From: Bacillota bacterium
GTDB lineage: Bacteria > Bacillota > Sulfobacillia > UBA995 > UBA9673
Direction of reading: 5' to 3'
Assembly (NCBI GenBank): GCA_003599345.1
Contig: QZJP01000020.1
Location: 1 to 43,536, forward strand
Length of the DNA: 43,536 nt
The position numbers and the translations under genes were made by a program. The notes under the pieces are model-generated. The model saw nothing but the letters and a program-made list of their open reading frames with translations, had not been told where the DNA came from and made no database searches. Shown here piece after piece: positions 2,884 to 36,583 of the stretch. The first letter of the stretch is position 1, and every line of letters begins with the position of its first letter.

Positions 2884-2960
2884 GAAATTCGTGCTGGAGT
2901 ACAGAAGGACTCTCCCACGTATGATATGGGGATAGAGAAACCTTGTGGGAGGGTTCAAAA

Positions 2961-3695
2961 ATGAAACGGTTTGCGGCAGGTCTTCTGGTTGGTCTCATTC
3001 TCGGTGGCGGCGCGGCGGTATGGAGCAGTAGTTTCGGTTACTATGCGGTCACTGAGGAACTGTCGTTCCCTATCGTTCAGGTGGTGGTCAACGGTAAGGC
3101 ATTGACTTTCGCGGAGGACGACGTTCCAGCAATGCTTCTTGGCGGGCGTGTAATCCTGCCCTTGCGCGCGGTCGCGGAAGTGCTTGGCGCGGAAGTCCAA
3201 TGGGACGGCGAGAGTTACACCACCATAGTGGACACAACGGGAATTCAGAGAGAGGGCGTTAAGGTGGTGGAGGGTGCATTGGACGGTAATGCAATGTTCG
3301 GTCAAGCGATAACAACAAACGGTGTCACTGTCACGGTGGATGTGGATTACGATCAGAATGGATTGCCAATCATCTCTCTTGCCGTCTCCAATCGCGGGAC
3401 GGACATCATCCTGGGACCTACTAAGCCGAGACGGCTCGGCATTACCCTTTCGAACCCCAGTCTTGAAGCCGAGTTCGACAGGGTCACGCCGAGCAGTGAG
3501 CCGGGGATGGTTGACCGGGAGACATTAGAGCCGGGGCAGGATGCCACGATGACATTCTTGTACAAGACCTTCTGGCCCGGCGTGACCATTACCAGTGTAA
3601 CTTATTCGTACTTCCCACTACTTGAAGGCGGGCTAGACCAACCCGTGACCGTCTTGGGCCAGCCCGTGACCGTCGGCACCTGGACGGCACCCTAA
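2961..3695 (+). CDS. Secreted protein with copper-amine-oxidase-N-like domain
   Basis: Encodes 244 aa. ATG 2961 is preferred to an in-frame TTG at 2943 because GGGAGGG at 2947-2953 sits correctly for it. Residues 1-25 are a signal peptide or signal anchor (MKRFAAGLLVGLILGGGAA). Residues about 35-85 (VVVNGK, LLGGRVILPLRAVAEVLGAEVQWD) match the Cu_amine_oxidN1 domain that is frequent in exported Bacillota proteins. The rest is beta-rich and unrecognised. The gene has lower G+C than its neighbours and is followed by its own terminator, which suggests a recently acquired cargo gene. It may alter the surface of a lysogen; that is inference. Confidence 0.7.
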   Translation: MKRFAAGLLVGLILGGGAAVWSSSFGYYAVTEELSFPIVQVVVNGKALTFAEDDVPAMLLGGRVILPLRAVAEVLGAEVQWDGESYTTIVDTTGIQREGVKVVEGALDGNAMFGQAITTNGVTVTVDVDYDQNGLPIISLAVSNRGTDIILGPTKPRRLGITLSNPSLEAEFDRVTPSSEPGMVDRETLEPGQDATMTFLYKTFWPGVTITSVTYSYFPLLEGGLDQPVTVLGQPVTVGTWTAP

Positions 3696-4974: not shown

Positions 4975-7900
4975 TGGCGCGCGGCCTCTTCCGCAGCACC
5001 GCCGGGGGCGCGGGCGCGCGGCGCGGCATCTTCCAATCCCCCACGGCCACCACCCAGGACCCCCTCTCACGCACCCTCGCGGCCAACGAGACCCTGCGCG
5101 CGCGCCTTGCCGCGGCGGGACAGCCCGCCGAATCCCTCGGGCAGAAGACCCTCCGCGGCCTGTCCTGGCTCCTCTACCAGATATCCCGCCCATACTACGC
5201 CGTCACGGGCGGCCTCCGCGAAGCCCTGGCGGGCGGCGGCCTCGGCGCGGTGGGCCGGGAGGCTTGGGAGGGCCTCACCCTCAAGGAGAAGGACACCGTC
5301 TCCGACATCCTCTCCGACGTTGGCTGGGAACCGGAGACGAAGGCGGGCAAGTTCGCCAAGGGCGCGGTGTCCTTCATCGGTGACGTGCTCCTCGACCCGG
5401 CGACGTACGTCACCCTGGGCGCGGCGGGCGTCACGCGCGCGGGCCTGAAGGGTGCGCTCAAGGGCACGATGAAGGCGGCCGGGCGCGAACTCGGCGAGGA
5501 GGCCCTGGAGCGGACGGCGCGCGAACTCGCGGAGGAGGCGGCGAAGCGCGGCCTCAAGGGGCGGGTTTCGCGCAAGGCGGCCTCCGAGATGGCGGAGAAC
5601 ACGGCGAAGCGGCTGGGCGACGCGACGCTCCGCGGCCCGCTGGAGGAGGCGCTGCTCCGGGCGAAACCGGCGCGGCGGCTCCAGGTGGGCACGGGCATCC
5701 CGTTCTCCGGCGGCAGGAAGGTGCAAGCTGGCGTCTCCCTCGCGCGGCCCGGCGAGGCGCTGGAGCGGGCGCTCGGGCGTGTGGCGGAGACGCGGGCCGG
5801 TGGCGCGGCTGCGCGGCTTGGGCGCGCGGTGACGAGGCCCCTGGGCCAGGCGTTCGAGGTGGGCTACGGTTACGCTCAGCGGCTCCGCGACGTGGGGCGG
5901 CGGTTCAGGGACACGACGCGGGCGGGCGCGCGGCAGGTGTTCGAGGACACGCGGAACCTCGCGCGGGAGTTCGAGCCCGTGCGCCGGGCCGTGGGCGGGG
6001 TCGAATGGCGGGCGGCGGAGAAGGCGGCCGCGAAGCGCGATATCGCCATGCTCCACAAGGCCGGGGCGAAGGTGGGCGCGGATCACGCGCGGCTACACGA
6101 CCTCGCGCAGGAACTCTTCGGCGTGGACTCGCTGACGAAGCTCTCCGGCGAAGAGATGAAGGCGTTCAAGAAGCTTTTGAAGCACCCCGATTTCGGCAAG
6201 AAGGCCGCGAAAGAACTCCTCGAGTACACCCCTCCCGCCGCGAAGAAACTCTCCCCGTCCTACGCCATCATGCGCGCCGTCGATTCCGGGCGCATAGATG
6301 AACTCCCCGAGGCCCTGCGGCCCTTCGCCGCCGAAGCCAAGGAGACGTTCGACACCCTGGGCGCGACGGAGAAGGCCGTGGGCGCGCTCGACGACGTGCG
6401 GGCGAACTACTACCCCCACATCCTGCGCGGGTACTCGCGGGAGGTGGCGGACCAGCTCCATAACGCCATGGCGAAATGGAAGCAGGGCGCGGAGGCGGCC
6501 GGCGGCAAGGCTGCGCAGGAGGCGGAGAAGGCCGCGTTCATCGCGGAGGAGATGGCCAAGGGCGTGGCGGAGGCGGCCGCGCTCGCGAAGTGGCAGAAGC
6601 GGCTCGCGAAACTCCCGACGAAGACGCGGTTCGCGAAGAAGCGGACGCTGGAGACGTTCGAGGACCTGGAGCGGTTCGTGGAGTGGGCGCGGCAGTTCCC
6701 CGGCCTTGAGAAGCTCGCCATCGAGGACGACTTCGTGAAGGTCATGGGTATCCGCAAGCTCGCCCACGCGCGCGTCATGGCGAATCACGACATGTTGGCT
6801 TCCCTGCGCGCGGTCGGCGACGACCTGGTGGCGGACGCGAAGACGGCACCGGCGCACTTCGTCGATTCGCCGGTCCCCCAACTCAAAGGGGTCAAGGTCG
6901 CGCCGGAGGTCGCGCGGTTCCTCAACGACTTCAAAGAGCCGTTCACCAACATCGAATCCCTGCGCGGCATCCTCGGCATCTTCGACAAGGGGACGAACTT
7001 CTGGAAAGGCCTCGCCACGGCGGCCCGGCCCGGCTTCCATATCCGTAACGCCATATCGAACGTCTTCAACAACTGGCTTGCCGGGGTGCGCGACATCTCC
7101 TTCTACCGCGACGCCTACCGGCTCCAGCGGGCCGCGGCCAAGGGCGACGACGCCCTGCGCGCGCTCAGGGTGCGGGGAAAGAACGGCCTTGAACTCTGGC
7201 GCGAGGTCGTCTCCTCCGGCGTCACAGGGCACGGCTGGATGGGCGCGGACATCGGCGAGACGCTGGAGGACGTGCTGCGCGGGGCGCGGCAACCCTCGCG
7301 CGGCGGCGTGCTTGCAGAGGCCCTGCGGCACCCCGTCCTCACAGGGCGGCGCGTGGGCACGGCGGTGGAGGACAACGCACGCGTGGCGCACTACCTCGCG
7401 AAGCGCGCGGAGGGCCTCGACATCGAGGAGGCCGTGCTGTCGGTCAAGGGGGCGCTGTTCGATTACGACGAGCTGACGCCGTTCGAGCGAAACGTCCTCA
7501 AGAGAGTCTTCCCTTTCTTCACCTGGTCCCGCAAGAACATCCCCCTTCAGTTCTCCATGCTCCTCCAGCAGCCCGGCGTCTACGCGAAACTCGGCCACCT
7601 GAAGGACGCGGCGGAGACACTCTCCACCGGACCCGACGAGGCCGACCTCCCCGAGTGGATGCGGGACGCCTACGTCGTGCGGCTCCCGTTCCAGATCGGC
7701 GACAAACAGCTCTACGCTAACGTGGACCTCCCGCTGAACGACCTTTCCCTTCCCTCCGGGCGCGAGGTCCTGTCCATGCTGAACCCCCTCCTGAAGCTCC
7801 CCGTCGAATGGTTCACGAACACGCAGCTCTTCTCCGGCACCCCGCTGGAGGACGTGTCCGGCGAGTACGTGAAGGCGCCGGGCTACCTCTGGGCGCTCTA

Positions 7901-8616: not shown

Positions 8617-8880
8617 ATGGAAACGGGAGTGAGCGTCATGGGCCGCGCGACGGTCGCCGGAATCGCGGCGGAGGTCACCGAGGTGAAGACGCGCGTCGCC
8701 GTCGTGGAGGAATGGCGGAAGAGCGTCAACGGCGACATCGGCGAGATCAGGAACGACGTGAAGGAAATTCGGCGCACGGTGGAGGGGTTCTCCGGCCGGT
8801 TCGCTGCGTTCTTCGCCGCCGTCGCCGCATCGTGCGTCCTGCTGGCGATAGGCATCCTGGTCAAAATGCTCGGGGGGTGA
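8617..8880 (+). CDS. XhlA-like lysis-associated membrane protein
   Basis: Encodes 87 aa from ATG 8617, with AAGGAG upstream. Residues about 15-60 form an amphipathic coiled coil (VTEVKTRVAVVEEW, IGEIRNDVKEIRRTVEGF) and residues about 63-85 form one transmembrane helix (FAAFFAAVAASCVLLAIGIL). A cytoplasmic coiled coil with a C-terminal membrane anchor is the layout of the haemolysin XhlA family, which works with holin and endolysin in Bacillus-type phages and prophages. It lies immediately before the endolysin gene, which supports a lysis role. Confidence 0.7.
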   Translation: METGVSVMGRATVAGIAAEVTEVKTRVAVVEEWRKSVNGDIGEIRNDVKEIRRTVEGFSGRFAAFFAAVAASCVLLAIGILVKMLGG

Positions 8881-8914
8881 GGGGATGGAAGATTGTGAAA
8901 GAAGGCAACCGGTT

Positions 8915-10138
8915 ATGACTTATCCCACCATCATCACCTACCGCCGCCATGCAGGCGGCTGGTTTTACCTCCGCGGCGGCCCGCGCGTGAAGCTCGGCTC
9001 CGACGCCGACGGCTGGACCTACTTCGACCCCGACGAAATCCGCCGCGCCGCGCTCGACTTTCCCTTCCTCGACCCGGCCCGCGCGTTCGGTGAGTGGACT
9101 CACCACGTCCTGCAAAACCCCTGCGGCGGGCTCGCGCACTGCTCGCCGATGGGCCACATCTACTACGGCGCGCTGGTCTCGGGCCGCGAGTCGGACGAAT
9201 GGATGTGGCAGACGGTGGGGCACGAACTCGGACACGCATTCTGGTTCCGCCACATGCCCGACGACTTCCAGGCACACTACGCGGCCCTTGTGAAGCCGCT
9301 CCCCATCCCCGGCTGGACGGCGGACGAGTGTTTCGCGGAGGATTTCCGGTTCGCAGTGGGCGGCCCACTTCTCCGCATCATCCCGCACCAGCTTCGGAAA
9401 CGGGAACGGGGTTGGCGCGGCTGGGAGGATGTCGTGGCCCTGGTGCGCGAGGCCATCACGCGCGCGCGGCTGTGGCTGGAGGAGACGGGGTTGAACCCGG
9501 CGGAGCCCGCGGGGGAAGACGCACAAGACGAGGAGGAACCGCCTATGACTGAGAGTCTCGGATTGAAGCTCTTGCGCCCGGTGCCGGAGAAGTTCCCGGT
9601 GTCGGCGCGGTTCGGCGACAAGGGGACGGCGTGGCCGGTCCAGCACAACGGCGTGGACTTCGCGTGTCCGGAAGGGACACCGGTGCGCGCGGTGTCGAAC
9701 GGCGTGGTGATACGCGAGGGTTATGAATACCGGTCGGGCAATGTCGTGGTCATCGGTCATCCCCATTGGCCCGATGGCGGCGAGTCGCGGTACTGCCACC
9801 TCTCCCGTATCGACGTAACCATAGGTTCTTCCGTGAGGCAGGGTGGCATCATCGGGCTTTCCGGCTCCACCGGCAACCGCACCGACGAGAAGCCCATGCA
9901 GCCCCACCTCCACCTCGGCTGCATCGCGCGCGGCGAATGGTTCGACCCTACGCCCTACTTCACCACCGGCCCGTTCCCCGACGTGTACCCGGAGGACTGG
10001 GCAGTGGACGCCATCGCGCGGGTGCGGGACGCGGGCCTCATGGTGGGGGACGAGCGCGGCTTCCGGCCGGACATGCCGGTATCGCGGCGGGAGCTCGCGG
10101 CGGTGGTGGACAGGCTGGTGCAGAGGGGGAAAGGGTGA
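8915..10138 (+). CDS. Endolysin: HExxH protease-like + M23 peptidase + SLH domain
   Basis: Encodes 407 aa. ATG 8915 with AGAAGG upstream is preferred to ATG 8885, whose ribosome site is too close. Residues about 95-150 have HELGH (103-107) and a downstream DECFAEDF (137-144), a pattern like zinc metallopeptidases of the ATLF/Pro-Pro endopeptidase type. Residues about 225-345 are an M23/LytM endopeptidase with HNGVD (244-248) and HLH (331-333) zinc ligands. Residues about 353-403 are an S-layer-homology domain (FPDVYPEDWAVDAIARV). M23 enzymes cut peptide cross-bridges in peptidoglycan, and SLH domains bind secondary cell-wall polymer. A strong ribosome site precedes Met211, so a shorter M23-SLH product is likely. 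Confidence 0.85.
   Translation: MTYPTIITYRRHAGGWFYLRGGPRVKLGSDADGWTYFDPDEIRRAALDFPFLDPARAFGEWTHHVLQNPCGGLAHCSPMGHIYYGALVSGRESDEWMWQTVGHELGHAFWFRHMPDDFQAHYAALVKPLPIPGWTADECFAEDFRFAVGGPLLRIIPHQLRKRERGWRGWEDVVALVREAITRARLWLEETGLNPAEPAGEDAQDEEEPPMTESLGLKLLRPVPEKFPVSARFGDKGTAWPVQHNGVDFACPEGTPVRAVSNGVVIREGYEYRSGNVVVIGHPHWPDGGESRYCHLSRIDVTIGSSVRQGGIIGLSGSTGNRTDEKPMQPHLHLGCIARGEWFDPTPYFTTGPFPDVYPEDWAVDAIARVRDAGLMVGDERGFRPDMPVSRRELAAVVDRLVQRGKG
9531..9547 (+). promoter_or_regulatory. Internal ribosome binding site and start within the endolysin gene
   Basis: AGGAGG at 9531-9536 lies at good spacing before ATG 9545, in frame with the endolysin. Initiation here would give a 197-aa M23-SLH protein without the N-terminal metalloprotease-like domain. 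The start falls exactly in the acidic linker between domains. Confidence 0.55.
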
Positions 10139-12504: not shown

Positions 12505-12773
12505 CCGACGAGCCGCGCGACCCACCGGAGACGCCGCCCAAGCCACCTTCCAACGTCATCCCGTTCGGCCGCCGCCGGGTGCGCCGCAAATCGAAAGAGA
12601 CCGTCGTGAACGTCAACGTGAACACGCTGGCGGACGCGGCGCGGGCGGAAGTGCTCCTCACCGTCGGGGAACTGGCGCGGCGGGCGCGGCGGGGCGGGGT
12701 GAAGGGCTGGCTGGCGGGGCGCGTTCTGCGGCCGGTGGCGGAGGCGTTCGACTACGTCTTTCGGGGCGAGTGA
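12501..12773 (+). CDS. Unknown basic protein
   Basis: Encodes 90 aa from GTG 12501, coupled to the preceding gene by GTGA. The N-terminus is Pro-rich and then strongly basic (GRRRVRRKSKE). The middle has VVNVNVNTLADAARAEVLLT and the end is helical. No family is recognised. It lies between two small membrane-protein genes in the lysis/accessory region. The codon pattern is consistent with a real gene. Confidence 0.6.
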   Translation: MTDEPRDPPETPPKPPSNVIPFGRRRVRRKSKETVVNVNVNTLADAARAEVLLTVGELARRARRGGVKGWLAGRVLRPVAEAFDYVFRGE

Positions 12774-36437: not shown

Positions 36438-36583
36438 GTGGCTGGCGAGTTGCCACTGGCACCCGGGACACCGGGGGTTAGCTCAACGGTAGAGCGGCCA
36501 CAGGGGTGGCGAGACCGGGGTTCGACTCCACGGCCCCCGACCACTTAAACGAGGCGTCCACGCTACGCCTACTCGCCAGCCAC
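36438..36583 (+). ncRNA. TGGCTGGCG-bounded RNA module 3 with tRNA-like core
   Basis: GTGGCTGGCGAGT (36438-36450) and ACTCGCCAGCCAC (36571-36583) form a perfect 13-bp terminal helix. The core is a tRNA-like body at 36472-36543. Extra hairpins are TGCC/GGCA (36451-36461) and AGGCGT/ACGCCT (36552-36570). It lies alone between the portal and a small gene, 16 kb from modules 0-2, yet shares their terminal helix. No ORF uses the region. Confidence 0.65.
36472..36543 (+). ncRNA. tRNA-like element with truncated anticodon arm and encoded CCA
   Basis: Seven acceptor pairs (36472-36478 with 36533-36539, last one G-U), D stem GCTC/GAGC with loop AACGGTA, T arm CGGGG/CCACG (one mismatch) around TTCGACT, then discriminator A and CCA. 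The anticodon arm is only GCCAC-AGGG-GTGGC, a 5-bp stem with a 4-nt loop and no U33, followed by a normal 5-nt variable loop GAGAC. It should be recognised by RNase P and CCA-dependent factors but cannot decode. Confidence 0.7.

What the first reader, a model, noticed from the sequence alone, without database searches (positions are those of the whole stretch)
8915..10138. Endolysin with HExxH protease-like, M23 and SLH domains and a likely internal start
Seen: HELGH plus DECFAEDF in the N-terminal domain, complete M23 zinc ligands, an SLH domain, and AGGAGG-ATG placed exactly at the domain border (9531-9547). Known: some endolysins make a second, shorter product from an internal start that assembles with the full form. 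The HELGH...FAE pattern recalls ATLF/Pro-Pro endopeptidases, which would be unusual in a lysin and might cut S-layer or surface proteins.
Basis: partly seen in the sequence, partly recalled or inferred. Interest (0 to 1): 0.7.

Follow-up and report, generated by a model that had tools for sequence, protein, structure and literature searches.

The report
Phage lysin with lethal-factor-like protease
This phage's cell-bursting enzyme carries, besides a normal wall-cutting part and a surface anchor, an extra protein-cutting part folded like anthrax lethal factor and Pro-Pro endopeptidases, and an internal start signal at the join would also yield the enzyme without it; two other phages show the same plan, which suggests a lysin adapted to bacteria with a protein coat.

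Summary
Window 8915-10138 encodes a 407-residue phage endolysin: metalloprotease-like domain (1-~193), M23 peptidase (243-345), one SLH domain (353-395). The N-terminal domain has no significant family match by itself, but relatives carry its invariant HExxH...E-x-F-A-E-D-F-R signature. A profile of the family ranks anthrax lethal factor first in the PDB, and AlphaFold models of two members both match lethal factor and Pro-Pro endopeptidases best. It lacks the oxyanion tyrosine of those enzymes at the expected place, so I call it ATLF/PPEP-like, not a PPEP. Two other phage lysins share the plan protease-peptidoglycan hydrolase-SLH, with glucosaminidase in place of M23; a fourth prophage has the protease as a separate gene beside its amidase. 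In all three fusions the strongest internal ATG start sits at the protease border; the glucosaminidase lysins have a further strong GTG start before SLH. Endolysins with internal starts, and one SLH endolysin, are known; protease-armed ones are not in the 50,697 phage records searched or the papers found. Most likely the protease cuts host S-layer/SLH proteins during lysis. Substrate, activity and the second product are inferred.

The parts
8915..10138 (+). Endolysin gene, 407 aa (alternative upstream ATG at 8885)
   Evidence: own SD AGAAGG 8900-8905, 9 bases before ATG
8915..9493 (+). N-terminal ATLF/PPEP-like metalloprotease domain, residues 1-193
   Evidence: homologs and AlphaFold/PDB comparison
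9221..9235 (+). HELGH zinc-binding motif, residues 103-107
   Evidence: invariant H103, E104, H107 in nine homologs
9323..9349 (+). DECFAEDFR, residues 137-145; E138 is the presumed third zinc ligand
   Evidence: invariant; aligned with the E-x-F-A-E motif of lethal factor
9530..9536 (+). Internal Shine-Dalgarno GAGGAGG
   Evidence: strongest of 32 internal start sites in the gene
9545..10138 (+). Short in-frame ORF from Met211: M23-SLH, 197 aa
   Evidence: protein 3
9641..9949 (+). Peptidase_M23 domain, residues 243-345
   Evidence: PF01551 1.1e-24
9971..10099 (+). SLH domain, residues 353-395
   Evidence: PF00395 6.8e-9
8617..8880 (+). XhlA-like protein with a C-terminal transmembrane stretch, just upstream of the lysin
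   Evidence: PF10779 XhlA 0.0071, below cut-off; hydrophobic C-terminus; similar genes beside the lysin or protease in L075 and L069

Best explanation
The gene is the endolysin of a phage with a P22-type portal, of a Firmicute with SLH surface proteins. It makes two in-frame proteins: a full-length one (ATLF/PPEP-like zinc protease - M23 peptidoglycan peptidase - SLH anchor) and, from Met211, the M23-SLH hydrolase alone. At lysis the SLH domain holds both on pyruvylated secondary wall polymer. M23 cuts peptidoglycan cross-links, and the protease cuts host S-layer or other surface proteins that would hold the cell ghost together or hinder the lysin and virion escape. Shown here by computation: domain content, protease-type zinc motif and fold, recurrence in other phages, and the border position of the internal start. 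Inferred: proteolytic activity, surface-protein substrate, production and ratio of the two forms.
For: Domains. Protease domain: profile of the family ranks lethal factor first among all PDB sequences (E 0.016). AlphaFold model of the window domain (pTM 0.69, pLDDT 64): Foldseek and VIA-align put lethal factor and PPEP-1/2/3 on top (Z 9.7, rmsd 4.0, 159 aligned), and a model of the L075 lysin domain gives the same list (Z 7.9). Pfam ATLF hits relatives weakly (0.0037, 0.1, 0.24, 0.096). Recurrence: L068 12043-13350 and L075 6001-7233 are protease-glucosaminidase-SLH lysins in phage regions; L068's is followed by a holin. L069 has the protease fused to a Cu_amine_oxidN1 domain, next to an XhlA-like gene and an Amidase_3 lysin. 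Internal starts: the single ATG in the border linkers has the best SD of all internal ATGs in each of three lysins (1 of 7, 1 of 7, 1 of 8); in both glucosaminidase lysins the two best internal starts of any kind lie in the two linkers, against 0 of 316 internal start codons of comparable SD strength in other genes of those phages. Host bin: 20 SLH matches and two pyruvyltransferase genes, one CsaB-like.
Against: No activity or substrate data. Model confidence is moderate. No Tyr lies between residue 122 and E138, whereas PPEPs use an oxyanion Tyr 7 residues before the third ligand; catalysis could be weak or absent. The window domain alone gets no ATLF hit. Synonymous recoding makes an equally strong SD in 47%, 25% and 19% of trials at the three ATG sites. 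The phage-host link rests on binning. The S-layer as target is inferred from SLH anchoring only.
Confidence: 0.5

Rival explanations
1. The N-terminal domain has the fold but is no longer a protease; it serves as a binding or regulatory module (for example holding the lysin inactive or adding surface binding).
For: No tyrosine at the oxyanion position; shorter HExxH-to-Glu spacing in the window (31 residues against 43 in L075). The PPEP homolog CD1597 showed no activity on Pro-Pro peptides despite an intact HEXXH (PMC11460543).
Against: All zinc ligands and the catalytic Glu are invariant in nine divergent homologs, which is hard to explain without catalysis.
Confidence: 0.2
2. The protease acts on the lysin itself, cutting the Pro-containing linker to release M23-SLH, so that processing rather than an internal start gives the short form.
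For: The only Pro-Pro of the 407 residues is at 209-210, in the linker; the other two lysins also have Pro-Pro near the protease end.
Against: In G004 the protease is on a separate protein from the amidase. Linkers are often Pro-rich. Recurrent SD-ATG at the border offers a simpler route.
Confidence: 0.1
3. The internal SD-ATG is a by-product of Glu-rich linker codons in a GC-rich genome and is not used; only the full-length protein is made.
For: Synonymous shuffles match or beat the SD in 47% of trials for the window; several other sites of the gene reach -9.3 to -10.2.
Against: Best site at the border in three lysins with dissimilar linkers, and at both borders in two. Such starts are predicted in about half of the endolysins studied in PMC9430671.
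Confidence: 0.3

Closest known systems
Anthrax lethal factor catalytic domain (Pfam ATLF PF07737, MEROPS M34)
   Same: Best fold match of two models; HExxH and E-x-F-A-E motif aligned
   Different: About 12% identity; below Pfam detection; no tyrosine at the oxyanion position; in a phage lysin with a wall anchor, not a toxin
Pro-Pro endopeptidases PPEP-1, -2, -3
   Same: Same fold in the searches (Z up to 8.8), size and zinc motif; PPEP-1 cuts bacterial surface adhesins
   Different: PPEPs are secreted host proteins; this is a lysin domain without signal peptide; Pro-Pro specificity unknown
LysBT1, SLH endolysin of a Brevibacillus prophage (PMC12285257)
   Same: C-terminal SLH as wall-binding domain, thought to bind secondary wall polymer
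   Different: Amidase instead of M23; no protease domain; EDTA disruption of the S-layer was needed for it to lyse B. cereus
Two-polypeptide endolysins (Ms6 LysA, 2638A ORF007, Lys170, CD27L; PMC9430671)
   Same: In-frame internal RBS and start; as in Ms6 and 2638A the short form keeps a catalytic domain and the wall-binding domain
   Different: The part missing from the short form is a protease-like domain, not a peptidoglycan hydrolase; production of two forms not shown

Membership tests
M23 endolysin | M23 domain with zinc ligands HxxxD and HxH | tested here: met
   PF01551 1.1e-24; H244, D248, H331/H333
M23 endolysin | Position in a phage lysis module | tested here: met
   Phage contig with terminase, portal, integrase; after the tail genes and directly after an XhlA-like gene. 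XhlA match is below cut-off
SLH-anchored endolysin | C-terminal SLH domain | tested here: met
   PF00395 6.8e-9, above cut-off
ATLF (PF07737 / M34) | HExxH plus downstream Glu ligand in an E-x-F-A-E motif | tested here: met
ATLF (PF07737 / M34) | Score above Pfam gathering threshold | tested here: not met
   Not listed for the window domain up to E 10; sub-threshold in relatives
ATLF (PF07737 / M34) | Fold | tested here: met
   Lethal factor first in both models, Z 9.7 and 7.9; model confidence moderate
Pro-Pro endopeptidase | Oxyanion tyrosine 7 residues before the Glu ligand | tested here: not met
   Residue 131 is Ile; no Tyr from 123 to 138
Pro-Pro endopeptidase | Secreted by signal peptide | tested here: not met
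   No hydrophobic N-terminus
Pro-Pro endopeptidase | Cleavage of Pro-Pro bonds | not testable with these tools
   needs peptide assay
Two-polypeptide endolysin | In-frame internal RBS and start at a domain border | tested here: met
Two-polypeptide endolysin | Two products made | not testable with these tools
   needs expression

The most novel reading that the evidence does not exclude
A recurrent class of endolysins of phages of SLH/S-layer Firmicutes carries an active lethal-factor/PPEP-like protease that opens the host's protein coat, and uses nested internal starts (full; hydrolase-SLH; in some, SLH alone) to set the ratio of protease, wall hydrolase and anchor.
Probability: 0.35. Interest if true: 0.75.

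Novelty: new variant of a known kind. Interest (0 to 1): 0.6.

Why it matters
How phages get through a proteinaceous S-layer at lysis is little described; LysBT1 needed chemical disruption of the S-layer to lyse B. cereus. A lysin that brings its own surface protease would answer this for one group and make it testable. It also places the lethal-factor/PPEP fold in phage lysis modules, and adds a case where internal starts separate a non-peptidoglycan activity from the hydrolase.

Tried and rejected
The window domain alone found nothing useful in PHROGs or PDB sequences, and Pfam gave only Reprolysin_5 at 0.025, below cut-off, over the HExxH helix. No relative in 50,697 phage records or a DNA-level plasmid search; in IMG/VR only an identical copy. 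A tree of 38 domains did not resolve whether the phage domains have one origin: long branches, open forks. More fusions were sought in relatives of G173 and the classes of G173 and G275, with none beyond those reported. An assembly-error or frameshift origin of the fusion was rejected, since two other lysins show the same continuous plan. The GTG at 10004 lies inside the SLH domain with an SD encoded by the PEDW stretch, so it was not counted as a start. BFVD matches were all weak; one is annotated M34. Local RNA structure around the starts gave no consistent pattern.

Full report
Observation. Window 8915-10138 encodes 407 residues without a stop. Pfam finds Peptidase_M23 (243-345, 1.1e-24) and SLH (353-395, 6.8e-9) and nothing significant before residue 243. 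HELGH (103-107), DECFAEDF (137-144), the M23 ligands, and GAGGAGG 9530-9536 eight bases before ATG 9545 are as described.

Setting. The window is a whole 43,536-base contig (C7) of a 2.3-Mb, 82% complete bin whose relatives are Firmicutes. It is a phage: terminase large subunit, P22-type portal, head and tail proteins, tyrosine integrase. The lysin follows the tail genes and a small protein with a weak XhlA match and a C-terminal transmembrane stretch. IMG/VR holds an identical lysin in a 44,414-base contig. The bin has 20 SLH matches and two pyruvyltransferase genes, one CsaB-like, which fits SLH anchoring. That the bin is the host rests on binning.

What the N-terminal domain is. The first clear relative was in a genome of the same order (L011/L069, 32% identity by alignment). 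Profiles from these two and further members then reached many secreted Firmicute proteins, and MAG proteins from Eisenbacteria and Latescibacterota, nearly all with HExxH and an E-x-F-A-E-D-F-R-like motif. Sub-threshold Pfam ATLF matches occur in several. A profile of nine members against all PDB sequences ranks lethal factor first, aligned from its HExxH to its E-x-F-A-E motif (E 0.016). An AlphaFold model of the window domain (pLDDT 64, pTM 0.69; one model clearly better than the other four) matches lethal factor and then PPEP-1, -2, -3 (Foldseek E 0.035, probability 0.90; VIA Z 9.7, rmsd 4.0, 159 aligned). A second model, of the L075 lysin domain, gives the same families on top, above M1 aminopeptidases (Z 7.9 against 5). 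Each line alone is moderate; motif, profile and two models agree. The two models share alignment rows and so are not fully independent. I conclude a gluzincin of the lethal-factor/PPEP fold. It is not filed as a PPEP: no tyrosine precedes E138 at the oxyanion position (for the PPEP residues), no signal peptide, and specificity cannot be tested here.

Recurrence in phage lysis modules. L068 12043-13350 (in a complete 2.88-Mb genome) and L075 6001-7233 (Bacillota MAG) each encode the protease domain, a glucosaminidase (8.5e-33, 1.1e-19) and an SLH domain (3e-16, 6e-16). L068 has a phage major head protein, a virion structural protein, and a holin right after the lysin; L075 has a tape-measure and tail genes and an XhlA-like gene right before the lysin. 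L069 has the protease fused to a Cu_amine_oxidN1 domain, then an XhlA-like gene, then an Amidase_3 lysin, in a prophage. So the protease belongs to the lysis module and has been joined to different hydrolases or left separate. A tree could not say whether the fusion arose once.

Internal starts. In L075, GGAGGG precedes an in-frame ATG at 6574; in L068, AAAGGAGG precedes an in-frame ATG at 12733; both lie at the protease/hydrolase border, as in the window. In each gene that ATG has the best anti-SD pairing of all internal ATGs (1 of 7, 1 of 7, 1 of 8; chance about 1 in 400 if ranks are exchangeable). The two glucosaminidase lysins also have a very strong GTG site just before the SLH domain (L068 13186, -13.5; L075 7024, -12.2), so that in both the two best internal starts of any kind fall in the two linkers. 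In other genes of those two phages none of 316 internal start codons reaches -9.5 kcal/mol; in the window's phage 4.3% do. Against this, linkers are Glu/Lys-rich and synonymous recoding gives equal SDs in 5-47% of trials. I read the starts as probably used. Known endolysins with internal starts include two (Ms6 LysA, phage 2638A ORF007) where the short form keeps a catalytic domain (PMC9430671), and about half of the endolysins in that study have predicted ones, so this part is a known kind.

How it most likely works. SLH domains bind secondary wall polymer (LysBT1 paper, PMC12285257; pyruvylation of the polymer by CsaB is my own background knowledge). M23 cuts peptidoglycan peptides (family knowledge). 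The protease, held at the wall, would cut surface proteins; PPEP-1, of the same fold, cuts bacterial surface adhesins, and LysBT1 lysed B. cereus only after EDTA disturbed the S-layer. The stronger internal SD (-11.8 against -4.7 for the first start) would give more M23-SLH than full protein. Protease activity, substrate and product ratio are inference.

Novelty. No relative of the protease domain was found in 50,697 phage records, and literature searches found no protease-bearing endolysin of this sort (the paper on PPEP domain diversity, PMC8610288, is not held). It is a new variant of known kinds: modular endolysin, SLH endolysin, two-start endolysin, ATLF/PPEP-like fold.

Noticed in passing
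window 2943-3695: Protein with a Cu_amine_oxidN1 domain (2.4e-9) among the phage structural genes; the same domain is beside the lysin in L068 (11257-12009, minus strand) and fused to the protease in L069. It may be a wall-binding module used by these phages.
   Followed up: partly
L068 13186 and L075 7024: Strong SD plus in-frame GTG just before the SLH domain in both glucosaminidase lysins, which would give an SLH-only third product.
   Followed up: partly
G004 C30 131355-131630: A second, weaker match to the protease family (513-aa frame) about 18 kb from the prophage protease gene.
   Followed up: no
L036, L063, L065, L066: Secreted bacterial proteins that join an HExxH protease-like domain of this family with C-terminal SLH-like repeats, a host-side version of the same pairing.
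   Followed up: no
window 36472-36543: tRNA-like gene with an unclear two-base anticodon call (gg).
   Followed up: no
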